Below are positions 1-44,842 of a stretch of 64,000 bases of DNA, piece by piece. Positions within the stretch are counted from its first letter, which is position 1. Each line of letters opens with the position of its first letter. A program made the position numbers and the translations under genes. The notes below the pieces were generated by a model. It searched no databases. It was given only the letters and a program-made list of their open reading frames with translations, and was not told the origin of the DNA. Where the stretch lies: the NCBI GenBank assembly GCA_964019415.1, contig OZ025875.1, positions 7,547,306 through 7,611,305 on the forward strand, given 5' to 3'. This stretch comes from Ianthella basta. Lineage: Eukaryota > Porifera > Demospongiae > Verongiida > Ianthellidae.

Positions 1-2799
1 ATACTCCCAATCCCATCTGGACCAGATATTTGTTGTAGATCAGTTATGGGGAACTCATGAGGTATGAGTCTCCCATAGCTGTGGACAACACTGCCACCTG
101 AATGTTGAGAAAGCAGTAGGATTTCACTCCAGTACGCTGTTCCATGTTACATCACTCTACTGTAGTGAAGTGAAGGGCATACCTGTGACATTGAATGTGA
201 AGCTAGCATTAACTTGCTGTCCTCCTGTAGCTGTCACCTGACAGGTGTATGTCCCTCCATCACTCGTGGAAGTTGTGATGACAGCCAAGATGTGTTCATT
301 GTAAACCTTTCTACCATAATACCCTTCTACCTCACATGGTCCATTTGGACAGGTCCAGGTGTAGCTGAGTGGTGTTCCATAAGGTAGACCAACAACCTGA
401 CAGACTAGGATGAGTTGAGTTCCAAGGGGAACTGAGTCCCCAGATGTGAGAGTACTGTTGTGTGTGTAGCCATCAATCACCACAGTCAATGCTGCACGAG
501 GGAATAGAAGAAGAAACAATATAATTGCACACGACCATATACTGCATAATGATTTGAACATCTGACCCTCCTGTAAGCACACTTTTGTCATGAGAGTGGT
601 GCATGTCTTATTTCAAAAGTGGGACTAGAGTTAGGATACGTACAATGAGTAATTAATGCAGTCAATTAATTGCACACCAATGAAACCTGGTACACCCAAC
701 CATGCACGTGCCGGTACTGTGTTCGTGCCTATCACTTGCACTAGCATTTTGTGTTCGTATCCTTCTGCCTACCTGCTGCATTGGTTGTAATGTGTTTGTT
801 AGTGCTGTATGTGACATGGATAGATGCCCTCCCAGCTGAGTTCACTGCCACCACTCTGATGGTGTACTTGGTACCACTGTGTAGTCCTGTCAAGTTGTAG
901 TGGGTGCTATCACTTGTAGTGTTGACTGAGGTCCAATTCCCACTGTCCTCTCTCTTGTACTCTATGACATAGTGCACCTCTCCATTGGGTTCAGTAGGAG
1001 GTAGCCAGTTCAATTCAACACCATCTTGGAACACTCTTGTGATGGTAACATTTCTTGGAGAGGAGGGGGCTGTTAGATCGAAGAAAGGTGTTAGAGTGAA
1101 GTAGTAGTGATGAGGTAACACGTACAAGAATTAGACACATATTATTTAATGGTGTAAATAGAAATGGCACTAACCATTGTAACCAAATAATAATAATACA
1201 CAGTCTATGAATCACACAGCTCACTTCCTTCTTCAGTGGTAACACTCTCCACTGCTGGTGTTGCACTCCTGCTACCATTACCAAGTGCCCATGCTGTAAT
1301 CCTGTACCAAGCACCTGGTACTGCAGGACTGATTGTAACTCTCCTCCCTCTACCTGTATTCACATACTCTCCTATCATTGGTACTCCAAAGCGGAACACC
1401 TCATATCCAGCAATGACTTCAATTGCGCTGCCATTTGCTGTTGTCACATACACCACTTGTGAGCCAGTCACATCTGTGACAGTGACTCCTGGGGGTGGAA
1501 CTGTGTGAAGCATGGAGTAATGTAGGCATGAGCGTCCATTATAAACTGGTCAAGTTGCACCCTATTGCATAATAGTATTTTACATAATATGATTGCATGC
1601 CTGCGTTGTAGCAGGTGTTGATTCTGCATCCACAGTAAATTGGAGCGGTGAAATTTCAACCACTCTTTATGTATACTGCCTAGTGCGTCAGCCAGTGTTA
1701 TCACCTCCTACATTAAGACCCATTAGCAGTTAGTAGCCACAGTCATTTTGTGATGTATGAAGTGCTGTACTGTACATATGCAGCAGTGATGTTGTGTGAT
1801 AGAGTAGATTCATTTTGGGCATTGTAGCACCAGATTGGATGTATCTACTACTCACTGTTGTTTGATGAATAATTGAGGTAGAGATAGAAGGAGTTATTGT
1901 CATTAGAATTGCAGTACAAGTCCTTGTTCTGATAGTTGTCACTAGTTGTGTTCACCACTAATACTGCTATCTGGTTCATTCCACCAATCCTTGCCTCTCT
2001 AACTGGTATGTTGAATTCAGCTATTCCACTGCTGACAGTGCAAGTGATCCTCCCAATCCCATCTGGACCAGATATCTGCTGTAGATCAGTTATGGGGAAC
2101 TCATGAGGTATGAGTCTCCCATAGCTGTGGACAACACTGCCACCTGAATGTTGAGAAAGCAGTAGGATTTCACTCCAATACACTGCTCTATGTTACATAA
2201 CTCTACTGTAGTGAAGTGAAGGGCATACCTGTGATATTGAATGTGAAGCTAGCATTAACTTGCTGTCCTCCTGTAGCTGTCACCTGACAGGTGTATGTCC
2301 CTCCATCACTCGTGGAAGTTGTGATGGCAGCCAAGATGTGTTCACTGTAGACCTTTCTACCATAATACCCTTCTCTTTCACATGGTTCATTTGGGCAGGT
2401 CCAGGTGTAGCTGAGTGATGTTCCATAAGGTAGACCAACAACCTGACAGACTAGGATGAGTTGAGTTCCAAGGGGAACTGAGTCTCCAGATGTGAGGGTA
2501 CTGTTGTGTGTGTAACCATCAATTACTACAGTGACTGTTGAGGGAAGAGAAGAGTATATATGAAAGGGGCTATTTCTACCACACCCCTTTGAAATGCCTC
2601 CTCCACCTTCCCCTGTTGTACTTCCTCCTGTGAAAGTAAGACTAGCCCCCTCTTCCTGACTGCCACTGGCAACCAGACCTGAAGGGATGAGGAGACACGC
2701 CCTCTGAGCAAGTGCTCCTCCCCCTCACTGCATGTAGTGTGTGTCCTCACCTGATGTGGCAGTGAGTGCAGTGAGAAGTAGAGTGAACAGCATCCTCAT
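1..2799 (-). CDS. Receptor L: Ig/FN3 membrane receptor with a repeated Ig block, 3' end outside window
   Basis: Exons in transcript order: 2799-2751 (signal peptide, starts M-R-M-L-F-T), 2678-2607 (72-nt Gly/Ser/Glu-rich exon), 2534-2229 (Ig 1), 2143-1856 (cysteine-pair module 2), 1500-1225 (FN3 1), 1069-773 (FN3 2), 491-183 (a second Ig 1-type exon), 97-1 (start of a second module 2). Every junction is GT/AG and phase 1, and the frame is open throughout. The Ig exons show Cys (LVCQVV), Trp (YTWTC) and DGGTYTC, plus an extra close cysteine pair (TCPNEPC/TCPNGPC). FN3 2 has the usual LNWLPP and AVNSAG motifs. Gene J has the same first six exons, but L then starts a second Ig block instead of a stalk. 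The membrane helix and tail are not in the window. The 491-183 exon could instead begin a separate transcript, because an upstream in-frame ATG gives a hydrophobic leader. Confidence 0.72.
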
Positions 2800-3375
2800 C
2801 CTCCACGCTACAATACACTCTATACACACACTTATATAGTTACAGCTTCCTTATCTTTTACCCTTAGACCAAAGATGGTAAGAAACATGTTGCCATGGTC
2901 TTACTATGGTTTCTCCATTATCCTTGGGACTGTTATCTACCAGGCCCTCTATTATGAGCACAAACTTGTATAATTCATGTAAAGTGGTCTGTAGTATACT
3001 ATAGTGAATTTCTGTTGTTTTGATGCATATCTGCAGTGTGGAGTACAGCCAAACGTTAAGAGATGCACAACTATGCCACAAACATATGAGGCCTATATGG
3101 GTGTTGCATTGCTCTCACCTCTGTTGCCATTTGACAATAATAATAATTATTTTAATGCATTCTATGCAGTTTCAGGAGTACACAGTGGTGTGGGCATGTA
3201 AGGATCCATGATACAAAGAGAAACAAAATATTTGAAGATGTAGTATGGTAATCATACATAATTCTGCATGTATACTCTAGTGTTCACATGGTATACACTG
3301 TGCATGCTATGGGTGACTGAGTGAGGCTGTATGTGTGCTTGTTGTCCACTCCTATATGTAATATAGTGTCCGCTC
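2800..3375. other. Intergenic spacer, part of a duplicated block
   Basis: No coding exon seen. The sequence from about 2840 to 3330 closely matches 8430-8960. Both lie between a J/L-type 5' end and an I/K-type 3' end, so the spacer was copied together with the flanking genes. Confidence 0.6.
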
Positions 3376-43597: not shown

Positions 43598-44842
43598 TCA
43601 GGACTCTGCAGCTTCAGCTTGCTTGATGTCAGGGTTCTCCTCACCACCTGTGGGCTGGACCAGCTGTTCTTCTTCATTCTCTTGGAACCACGTTTCCTGT
43701 CTTTCCAGCATTTCTCTTCTTGCTTGTGCTAGTTCCTGCTTCCTCTTTTGCCTTCTTTGCTTCACAACAGCCAAGACAACAGCAAGTGGACAGAGGACGA
43801 GGTTAAGGACAAGAAGGATGCCACACACAAGGGACACTGCAATTAAAGTCTGGTTGTATGTTGAGGATGCCACTGCAGTGGGAGGGGAGAGTGACGCGGG
43901 GGAGAGATGATTGAGGTCACTACTTTAACAGAGGCAAGGGACAGTCAATGTTGCAGTGGGTAGATGTCAATACTGTCAACACCATACCATGTCACTGGTG
44001 CCCACAGCCATAGCTAGTTGCTGTATACATGTGTCACTGCATTGACTTACAGTGCGTGCCTGCATCTTGAGCTCCTCCTCCTGAACCGCTAGTATGGTTG
44101 GCTGATGCTATCAGATGAATATGGGTATGTTGTCACATATGAGCAAGTACACACAAAACATATAGCTAGGCACACATGCACACAAACAACACACACATAG
44201 ACACACACACGCGCACACATGCACACACACATGCACACACACACACACACACACACACACTCACACGTGCACCCACACCCACACACCCCACACCACGCAC
44301 GCATGCACGCACACCCACCCACACCCACACCCACACACACACACACACACACCACACACACGGCCTACATAGCTAGTTGCGGCTCGCGCGCAGCTACGTA
44401 GCTACGTACGTACTTTCCAGCTACAGAGTGGTTAAAGAGTTTGGTAACCGAGAGTCTGACTAACACGTTATAGGCCATAGCGATTCTAGCTGACTATGGA
44501 GCGGCTACGTCCCTCAACGGCTTAGTGACCCACTTCGCGTAGCTATAGTTACGTACGTAGCTATTTACCTGAGCACGGCGGCTGCTCGCTCGCGTGTTAA
44601 GCTAGCATCCAAAAAGGATATAGGCCCAGCCGTGGCACACCCCAGCCTTCCCTAACTAGGCCGCTATCTGCACAATTTAATACTTTTAAACTCGATCCTC
44701 AAACCACAAAACTGTCACGGCAATGAATACCTACCCACGCACACAGAAACGTACGTACCGACACACACACTGAGTGTTTCTCACCAATAGTGGTCCGGAC
44801 AGACACCAGAATCAGGTTTACAACGAATAGCCCTTTCAGCAT
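43598..44842 (-). CDS. Gene A: small single-pass membrane protein with charged tyrosine-free tail
   Basis: Three exons: 44842-44785 (signal peptide M-L-K-G-L-F-V-V-N-L), 44051-44080 read on the minus strand (30-nt microexon, GGAQDAGTH) and 43872-43598 (membrane helix and tail). All are phase 1; 120 aa. The mature ectodomain is about 17 residues. The helix (about 37-62, LIAVSLVCGILLVLNLVLCPLAVVLAVV) ends in KQRRQKRK, then a charged, probably helical segment rich in Glu, Arg and Gln, with no tyrosine. A duplicate of the microexon at 35051-35080 supports that exon. It may be an accessory subunit for the neighbouring receptors; no known family recognised. It is the first gene of the array and is divergent from TPMT-1. 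Confidence 0.6.

What the first reader, a model, noticed from the sequence alone, without database searches (positions are those of the whole stretch)
1..44842. Tandem array of 12 related Ig/FN3 receptor loci with ITAM-like tails in a probable basal animal
All loci are on one strand and share exon plan and phase, but differ in tail type: ITAM-like (B, C, D, E, F, H, I), dense multi-tyrosine (J), tyrosine-free (A, G), unknown (L), relic (K). Polymorphic Ig-receptor clusters with activating and decoy members underlie allorecognition or immunity elsewhere (Hydractinia Alr complex, vertebrate leukocyte receptor complexes). The arrangement here suggests an equivalent complex; the function is inference.
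Basis: partly seen in the sequence, partly recalled or inferred. Interest (0 to 1): 0.92.

Follow-up and report, generated by a model that had tools for sequence, protein, structure and literature searches.

The report
Giant sponge immune-type receptor gene array
A probable sponge chromosome carries a very large tandem array of cell-surface receptor genes that share one outside design but end in different signalling tails, so the animal may be able to read one contact in several ways, much as immune and self-recognition receptors do in other animals.

Summary
The window lies on an 8.68-Mb contig of a 209-Mb genome, most likely a demosponge (21.2-kb mitochondrial contig, TGA as Trp, an atp9-type gene on it). 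The same unit occurs at 172 or more places in the genome, 141 of them in C8:6.26-7.65 Mb. Splice sites are mostly phase 1.

Tyrosine motifs are strongly enriched: paired YxxL/I motifs in 24 of 41 tails, but with spacing mostly 9-12; the canonical 6-8 occurs in 2 of 41. The strongest new evidence: two neighbouring genes are 88-93% identical through ectodomain, introns and stalk, then unalike at the TM/tail exon, near a block of eleven units where two tail types alternate strictly. That is paired-receptor architecture. A Shark-type (Syk-family) kinase and an SHP-1/2-like phosphatase are encoded. Polymorphism, expression and function were not tested, so allorecognition remains inference.

The parts
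43601..43924 (-). Locus A: TM exon with a tyrosine-free tail; no Ig/FN3 exon found; signal-peptide-like ORF with a donor at 44767-44842
   Evidence: TM scan; SP scan; no domain hit between this exon and about 71 kb
38258..41289 (-). Locus B: SP candidate by eye in ORF 40981-41289; Ig1 40675-40992; D2 40292-40591; FNa 39695-39982; FNb 39330-39632; TM/tail 38258-38862 (acceptor score low), type T5 with two YxxL-x9-YxxL
35543..36484 (-). Locus C: orphan TM/tail exon, T5 type, one YxxL-x9-YxxL; C-terminus differs from B by eye; no ectodomain exon
32272..32955 (-). Locus D: orphan TM/tail exon, T5 type, one YxxL-x9-YxxL; no ectodomain exon of its own
25578..31054 (-). Locus E: extra divergent Ig1 exon 30750-31054 without a phase-1 donor; Ig1 30128-30433; D2 29719-30036; FNa 28881-29165; FNb plus S/T-rich stalk 27538-28200; TM/long tyrosine-rich tail 25578-27208 (T6); no SP exon found
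20501..24538 (-). Locus F: Ig1 24227-24538; D2 23845-24141; FNa 22949-23239; FNb plus stalk 21953-22699; TM/long tyrosine-rich tail in ORF 20504-21961 (T6; its acceptor is not fixed); SP candidate by eye in ORF 25138-25350
18445..19598 (-). Locus G: Ig1 19299-19598 and a tyrosine-free TM/tail 18445-18777; a decayed D2-like stretch by eye, no FN3 hit; probable relic
13080..17340 (-). Locus H: SP 17265-17340; Ig1 16455-16781; D2 15583-15885; FNa 14490-14789; FNb 14012-14308; TM/tail 13080-13597 with YQAI-x9-YASL (T2)
8978..11620 (-). Locus I: Ig1 11300-11620; D2 10689-10994; FNa 10284-10583; FNb 9783-10079; TM/tail 8978-9474 with YQSI-x9-YASL (T2); no convincing SP exon found
5148..8376 (-). Locus J: SP candidate 8328-8376; Ig1 7781-8086; D2 7424-7708; FNa 6833-7111; FNb plus 24-nt-repeat mucin-like stalk 5874-6701; TM/tail 5148-5551 (T1, six tyrosines)
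3379..4560 (-). Locus K: relic; broken FNa 4276-4560, FNb 3790-4077, remnant of a T2 tail 3379-3579 by eye
773..2799 (-). Locus L, first half: SP candidate 2751-2799; Ig1 2229-2534; D2 1856-2143; FNa 1225-1500; FNb 773-1069 with a phase-1 donor and no TM/tail of its own
1..483 (-). Next unit: Ig1 181-483 and part of D2; it continues left of the window to a T1 tail at window coordinates -2342..-1914; no SP exon listed for it, so L and this unit may be one eight-domain gene
56033..57209 (-). Separate TM protein with an ectodomain unlike the receptors' (no Pfam match) but a T4-type tail like those right of the window

Best explanation
This is a very large clustered family of paired type I receptors in a demosponge. 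Each intact gene encodes (a signal peptide,) an I-set Ig, a second divergent Ig, two FN3 domains, often a mucin-like stalk, one TM helix and one of about six distinguishable tail types (sorted by motif). The ectodomain binds a ligand on a neighbouring cell or microbe (inferred). The tail decides the output: tails with two YxxL/I motifs could recruit a tandem-SH2 Syk-family kinase of the Shark type, other YxxPhi or YxN tails an SHP-type phosphatase or Grb2-type adaptor (inferred from motifs; such proteins are encoded, binding is not shown). Tandem duplication with tail exchange, or conversion of ectodomains, keeps near-identical ectodomains on different tails, so one ligand can be read with different outputs (architecture shown, output inferred). 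The most likely use is self/non-self or microbe recognition.
For: Regular Ig1-D2-FNa-FNb units: of 44 listed units or fragments in 264 kb, 35 have all four domain exons and 32 of these a tail; 172 or more units genome-wide; same order with T1-type tails in four units of a 20-kb slice of another chromosome. Phase-1 splice sites. D2 is Ig-like by fold; Ig1 resembles NCAM Ig1. Units 26 (T1) and 27 (T3) are 92-93% identical from upstream of Ig1 through FNa and 88% over FNb and stalk, with no match in the TM/tail exon; exon identities Ig1 .99, D2 1.00, FNa .99, FNb .97. Eleven successive units alternate T3/T1, and in that block identity between tail types is about that within them. YxxPhi 187 against 52 +- 6.6 in shuffles. 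T1 tyrosines are more conserved than other tail residues.91 against .72, permutation p .013, dN/dS .46, in 15 of 16 T1 tails. Shark-type SH2-ANK-SH2-kinase at C22:4.705-4.720 Mb: kinase piece to SYK 2.3e-42, first SH2 to SYK 2.3e-19, ankyrin and second SH2 by Pfam. SHP-1/2-like gene on C16.
Against: No expression, binding or polymorphism data. Canonical ITAM spacing is in only 2 of 41 tails. The strict ITIM pattern is in T1 tails (16 against 5.0) and not clearly enriched in T3 (6 against 3.1 +- 1.7), so no tail can be called inhibitory; T3 tyrosines are not more conserved than the rest (p .24, six of nine T3 tails). The Ig1 core is nearly invariant and dN/dS is about 0.6 in Ig1, D2 and FNb: not the picture of a hypervariable outer domain. 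Nearest ectodomain neighbours share the tail type more often than permuted labels (15-16 of 27-32 against 7-9), so tails are not freely shuffled over the whole region. Several units have split exons, probably broken frames. One table passage of PMC8662651 lists Syk among kinases that emerged in vertebrates, against two papers that report it in sponges.
Confidence: 0.62

Rival explanations
1. The complex is specifically the sponge's allorecognition (histocompatibility) locus: alleles differ between individuals and the receptors decide graft fusion or rejection, as Alr genes do in Hydractinia and the fuhc genes in Botryllus.
For: Same design principle as Alr (41 genes) and FcoR (53 loci, ITIM/hemITAM tails) as described in passages of PMC11999971 and PMC12065747; paired ectodomains with different tails; FNa windows with local dN/dS of 1.5-1.7 at two putative loops.
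Against: No polymorphism or cosegregation data; the outer Ig is conserved; Calx-beta arrays, the domain recalled for the classical sponge candidate (aggregation factor), are not linked: 0 of the 150 scored of 969 candidates lie on C8.
Confidence: 0.3
2. They are germline-encoded innate receptors for microbes or symbionts, expanded by an arms race, with no role in graft recognition.
For: Size (172 or more units) and tandem birth and death with relics and split exons; an oyster Ig receptor with an ITAM, CgIgIT2, that recognises microbes is reported in a passage of PMC11999971.
Against: No binding or induction data; paired tails also fit self recognition.
Confidence: 0.3
3. They are ordinary Ig/FN3 cell-adhesion molecules; YxxPhi motifs in the tails are endocytic sorting signals and tail variety is neutral drift after duplication.
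For: Ig1 is closest to NCAM and contactin domains; YxxPhi is also the recalled AP2 sorting signal; dN/dS below 1.
Against: Paired motifs far beyond shuffles; YxN repeats in three of five T4 tails, 13 against 2.2; conserved tyrosines in T1; alternation of two tail types on matched ectodomains.
Confidence: 0.2
4. The array is mostly decaying tandem duplication, with few working genes.
For: Relics G and K, orphan tails C and D, and a few split Ig1, D2 or FNa exons left of the window.
Against: 32 of 44 listed units or fragments in 264 kb have all four domain exons plus a tail, a few of them with a split exon; phase-1 sites are mostly kept; dN/dS is 0.46-0.63 in T1 and T3 tails, Ig1, D2 and FNb, and 0.89 in FNa.
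Confidence: 0.08

Closest known systems
Hydractinia Alr family (allorecognition complex)
   Same: Clustered Ig-superfamily receptors, with ITAM/ITIM-type motifs on candidate members, in an early-branching animal (41 genes; passages of PMC11999971 and PMC12065747)
   Different: Here Ig-Ig-FN3-FN3 with phase-1 exons, 172 or more units, motif spacing mostly 9-12; no polymorphism or graft genetics; sequence homology to Alr not tested
Botryllus fester co-receptors (FcoR) in fuhc
   Same: Multigene Ig receptors with ITIM, hemITAM and core YxxI/L/V tails, each next to a fester-family partner (passages of PMC12065747)
   Different: FcoR ectodomain is V-type Ig, sushi and two C2 Ig; here two Ig and two FN3, no sushi found
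Vertebrate paired receptors (leukocyte receptor complex, KIR, LILR; recalled)
   Same: Near-identical ectodomains on different signalling ends, tandem birth and death
   Different: The classical activating form uses a short tail plus an adaptor (recalled); here tails carry their own tyrosine motifs
Oyster CgIgIT2
   Same: Invertebrate Ig receptor with its own ITAM (passage of PMC11999971)
   Different: Five Ig domains, no FN3 mentioned in the passage; described there as one receptor
Sponge aggregation factor (Calx-beta/Wreath; recalled)
   Same: Published candidate for sponge allorecognition (recalled; cited in PMC12065747)
   Different: Calx-beta arrays lie on C11, C6, C23, C20, C36 and C1; none of the 150 scored matches is on C8

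Membership tests
ITAM-bearing receptor | Two YxxL/I motifs spaced 6-8 residues (canonical, recalled) | tested here: not met
   2 of 41 tails
ITAM-bearing receptor | Two YxxL/I motifs in a relaxed spacing of 6-12 (recalled) | tested here: met
   24 of 41 tails, 26 motifs against 0.5 in shuffles
ITAM-bearing receptor | Syk-family tandem-SH2 kinase in the genome | tested here: met
   Shark-type SH2-ANK-SH2-kinase on C22 (one EGFR entry ranks above SYK); no plain SH2-SH2-kinase Syk was seen, and only part of the 70 SH2 matches was examined
ITAM-bearing receptor | Tyrosine phosphorylation and SH2 recruitment | not testable with these tools
   Needs biochemistry
ITIM-bearing receptor | Strict [SIVLT]xYxx[IVL] above chance | tested here: inconclusive
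   T1 16 against 5.0; T3 6 against 3.1 +- 1.7; T4 3 against 2.2; T5 3 against 1.0
Paired receptor family | Near-identical ectodomains with different signalling ends | tested here: met
   Units 26 and 27, and the alternating block
Paired receptor family | Opposing activating and inhibitory outputs | not testable with these tools
   Needs functional assay
Botryllus FcoR | V-type Ig, sushi, two C2 Ig ectodomain | tested here: not met
   Ectodomain is Ig-Ig-FN3-FN3; no sushi match in the locus-B chain
Hydractinia Alr | Sequence homology to Alr proteins | not tested
   No Alr sequence was compared
Allorecognition complex | Extreme allelic polymorphism cosegregating with graft outcome | not testable with these tools
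   One assembly only
Sponge aggregation factor | Calx-beta repeats | tested here: not met
   No Calx-beta match in the locus-B chain; none of the 150 scored Calx-beta matches is on C8
Immunoglobulin superfamily | Ig fold in the ectodomain | tested here: met
   Ig1 36 of 36 in Pfam Ig_2/Ig_3 at E up to 0.01; D2 by fold only, no Foldseek row below E 0.001

The most novel reading that the evidence does not exclude
This is the long-sought receptor side of sponge self/non-self recognition: a 1.4-Mb complex of paired Ig/FN3 receptors in which ectodomain and signalling tail are exchanged as modules, so paired-receptor logic with tyrosine-motif tails and Syk-family readers was present in sponges, and the binding variety sits in FN3 loops rather than in the outer Ig.
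Probability: 0.3. Interest if true: 0.95.

Novelty: new variant of a known kind. Interest (0 to 1): 0.78.

Why it matters
Sponges reject foreign tissue (recalled), and the review whose passages I read says that candidate allorecognition proteins are not conserved between sponges, cnidarians and ascidians, while ITAM/ITIM-type motifs are found on candidate receptors of both Hydractinia and Botryllus (PMC12065747). A sponge complex of this size with matched ectodomains on different tails would extend that logic to sponges, and it gives a concrete locus to test by haplotype sequencing and grafting. It also offers a natural series of tail swaps on nearly constant ectodomains.

Tried and rejected
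Readings tested and dropped: D2 as a novel fold (its model gives Ig-type domains); A and G as decoy receptors (no ectodomain exon, or a single Ig exon); canonical ITAMs (spacing fails); a link to Calx-beta arrays (none on C8 among the 150 scored). Of the SH2 and kinase places fetched, L022, L025, L027 and L028 were named only by eye (PLC-gamma, GRB2-like, kringle-ROR-like, FES/FER-like); L023 and L029 were not identified.

All ten paper searches were seen as listings; passages only were read in PMC9486129, PMC10253181, PMC8662651, PMC2820527, PMC11999971, PMC10815962, PMC12065747, PMC2444032 and PMC2800124. I saw no description of this family in them; preprints and most subscription papers are not held.

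Weaknesses of my own analysis: the tail of unit 9 (locus F) was labelled T3 by a loose rule; it is T6. Tail types are sorted by motif, not by a tree. The census of 172 units rests on the 150 best of 410 Ig1 and of 192 D2 candidates, so it is a lower bound; 44 of the 172 show only one of the two exons; its coordinates were copied by hand into. The window exons were partly the seeds of the profiles that found them. Tail shuffles treat related tails as independent. One search used 15 of 16 T1 and 6 of 9 T3 tails (the long T1 tail at -44183 and the three T3 tails at -75720, -81965 and -87621 were left out beforehand). The acceptor for the tail exon of locus F is wrong because the seed lay inside the tail. 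The scripted SP scan supports A, H, J and L only; B and F are by eye, E and I have none.
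Full report
What and where. The window is C8:7547306-7611305 of a genome of 209,087,449 bases in 96 contigs; C8 has 8,679,716 bases. The mitochondrial contig C96 has 21,233 bases; the COX1 match has nine TGA codons inside and the gene reads through as 520 residues with TGA as Trp; a 4.3-kb piece of it has four tRNA genes, and the contig also matches ATP synthase subunit c over the Pfam cut-off, taken here as atp9. Passages of PMC2444032 give 16-25 kb, a minimally changed code, and atp9 in all but one of 22 demosponge mtDNAs; a passage of PMC2800124 says most Cnidaria keep only two tRNA genes. 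The animal is therefore most likely a demosponge. The species is not identified.

Exon anatomy. I built profiles from window exons and scanned six frames of 264 kb (C8:7397306-7661305). The order Ig1, D2, FNa, FNb repeats on the minus strand over the whole stretch, with one long break from about 44 to 71 kb of the window that holds methyltransferase-like copies; I did not annotate other genes between units. FNb is repeated six and five times in two units and twice in a third. Of 44 listed units or fragments, 35 have all four domain exons and 32 of these also a TM/tail exon; a few carry split exons, that is, probable frame damage, which I left as it is. The splice phase was tested against the two other phases: phase 1 alone gives the best donor in 120 of 153 exons (16 more ties that include it, 17 against) and the best acceptor in 142 of 153 (9 ties, 2 against). 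For seven window loci every domain exon except the extra Ig1 exon of locus E has both sites.

Domain identity. Ig1 matches Pfam Ig_2 and Ig_3 in 36 of 36 sequences; its AlphaFold2 model (mean pLDDT 89.1) is closest to NCAM Ig1 (E 3.0e-5, TM 0.67). D2 matches nothing real in Pfam and nothing in the PDB by sequence; its model (mean pLDDT 74.7) has seven strands, and the 50 Foldseek rows shown are titin, obscurin, myosin-binding protein C, antibody and similar Ig chains (one titled PDZ), with TM about 0.5 and no row below E 0.001. So D2 is probably a divergent Ig domain. FNa reaches fibronectin at 3.8e-5 by profile but Pfam fn3 only weakly (16 of 36 at E up to 1). FNb passes the fn3 cut-off in the chain tested.

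From high to low coordinates A to L correspond, by my mapping, to the TM/tail exons at 43601, 38261, 35543, 32272, 25581, 20504, 18445, 13083, 8981 and 5151, a remnant at 3379, and the tail-less ectodomain at 773-2534. A, C and D have no ectodomain exon in reach; C and D lie behind B and share its tail type, so they are either alternative tails of B or leftovers of lost units. G has one Ig exon. K is a relic. L's last exon has a phase-1 donor and the following Ig1 exon a phase-1 acceptor, with no signal peptide listed between, so L probably splices into the next unit, giving eight domains and a T1 tail beyond the window. That is an inference.

Size of the complex. With Ig1 and D2 exons as protein queries the genome gave 150 scored matches each, out of 410 and 192 candidates. 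Pairing hits on one strand within 1.5 kb gives 172 units: 128 with both exons, 22 Ig1 only, 22 D2 only. Of these 141 lie on C8 between 6.264 and 7.653 Mb, 16 on the plus strand at the left end and 125 on the minus strand, with a median spacing of 7.6 kb and seven gaps over 20 kb, the longest from 7.023 to 7.178 Mb; C16 has 18, C3 8, C4 4 and C20 1. A 20-kb slice of C16 shows the same exon order with T1-type tails in four units. These are lower bounds.

Tails. Forty-one TM/tail exons were sorted by motif: T0 without tyrosine (2), T1 (16), T2 (4), T3 (9), T4 (5), T5 (3), T6 (2). YxxPhi motifs number 187 against 52 +- 6.6 in composition-preserving shuffles; Y..[LI]x6-12Y..[LI] 26 against 0.5; canonical x6-8 spacing 2 against 0.2. 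The broad pair is in 14 of 16 T1, 4 of 4 T2, 3 of 3 T5, 2 of 2 T6, 1 of 5 T4, 0 of 9 T3 and 0 of 2 T0 tails. T4 tails repeat a YxN motif (13 against 2.2, in three of five), a Grb2-type motif by recall. In 15 T1 tails the tyrosine columns are more conserved than the rest (.91 against .72, permutation p .013) and dN/dS is 0.46; in six T3 tails the tyrosines do not stand out (p .24) and dN/dS is 0.60.

Paired architecture. Units 26 and 27, about 63-76 kb left of the window, are 92-93% identical from upstream of Ig1 through FNa with the introns, and 88% over FNb and the stalk repeats; no match covers the TM/tail exon, which is T1 in one and T3 in the other. Their domain exons are .99, 1.00.99 and .97 identical. 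Eleven successive units further left alternate T3 and T1 (two split Ig1 fragments counted with their units), and there the mean identity between tail types (Ig1 .901, D2 .942, FNa .940, FNb .880) is about that within them (.895-.906.926-.953.930-.944.863-.880). Over the whole region nearest neighbours do share tail type more often than permuted labels, 15 of 30, 16 of 27, 16 of 32 and 16 of 32 against means of 7-9, so exchange is local, not free. Shown: same ectodomain, different signalling end. Inferred: different outputs.

Selection. Pairwise dN/dS of paralogues is 0.60 (Ig1), 0.63 (D2), 0.89 (FNa, 37% of pairs above 1) and 0.57 (FNb). On a minimum spanning tree the values are 0.62, 0.61, 0.89 and 0.59; windows above 1.3 appear in FNa around two putative loops (1.5-1.7) and at the gappy end of Ig1 (1.37). 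The outer Ig is therefore conserved and the first FN3 is the candidate for diversification. Gene conversion breaks the independence of such counts, so this is a hint.

Readers of the tails. Among 70 SH2 matches I fetched DNA around some. C22:4.705-4.720 Mb encodes, in order on one strand, an SH2 (best PDB match SYK 2.3e-19), ankyrin repeats (Pfam), a second SH2 and a kinase whose matches are SYK (2.3e-42) and ZAP-70 (4.1e-42), below one EGFR entry that ranks first on two stretches. This is a Shark-type Syk-family kinase; that Drosophila Shark reads the ITAM of Draper is recalled. A plain Syk was not seen, although Syk is reported in sponges (passages of PMC9486129 and PMC2820527; a table passage of PMC8662651 places its origin in vertebrates); my search does not exclude it. 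C16:695501-703000 holds two SH2 pieces and a linker matching PTPN11 at 3.2e-15 and PTPN6 at 7.4e-15. PLC-gamma and GRB2-like genes were recognised by eye.

Interpretation. The sequence shows a tandem family mostly under purifying constraint, with phase-1 modular exons, tyrosine motifs beyond chance, and matched ectodomains on different tails. Mechanism proposed: contact-dependent receptors whose tail module sets the output through SH2 proteins. Self/non-self recognition and microbe sensing fit about equally; the first has the better precedent in clustered complexes (Alr, FcoR), the second in size and turnover. Nothing here measures polymorphism or function.

Membership. It works like paired receptors and like Alr or FcoR complexes, but its ectodomain is not that of an FcoR, homology to Alr was not tested, and its tails are ITAM-like rather than ITAMs by the strict spacing rule. 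I therefore call it a new variant of a known kind.

Noticed in passing
window 46700-61520: Tandem copies of a TPMT-like methyltransferase on the plus strand (Pfam TPMT over the cut-off for a joined peptide; repeat families D15 and D17 each have four copies) lie in a break of the receptor array.
   Followed up: partly
window 56033-57209, minus: A membrane protein with an ectodomain unlike the receptors' (no Pfam match) but a T4-type tyrosine tail, inside the methyltransferase array: a tail module on another ectodomain.
   Followed up: partly
window 15059-15427: Inverted repeat with 177-nt arms, 98% complementary, 15 nt apart, in the intron between D2 and FNa of locus H; possibly a young foldback element.
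   Followed up: no
window 5912-6445: A 24-nt minisatellite, 22 copies, is translated as the Ser/Thr-rich stalk of locus J; stalk length may vary between alleles.
   Followed up: no
G000:C22:3.77-4.72 Mb and C15:0.71-1.17 Mb: Two dense clusters of tyrosine-kinase exons, a second very large kinase expansion in this genome.
   Followed up: no
G000:C11:4.8-8.1 Mb, C6:7.36-7.44 and 8.45-8.47 Mb, C23:1.68-1.83 Mb: Large arrays of Calx-beta domains (150 scored of 969 candidates), candidates for aggregation-factor-type genes, unlinked to the receptor complex.
   Followed up: partly
G000:C12:1.688-1.713 Mb: Dense same-strand fn3 array with regularly spaced exons, apparently a different FN3 family.
   Followed up: no
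L008:6670-9384 and L009:6141-8335: Two units with six and five copies of the FNb exon, showing that ectodomain length varies by exon duplication.
   Followed up: partly
L021:1198-1350: trnN and a tRNA with anticodon tca (presumably Trp here) are on the strand opposite to cox1 in the mitochondrial contig; only two inversions were found among 22 demosponge mtDNAs (PMC2444032 passage).
   Followed up: no
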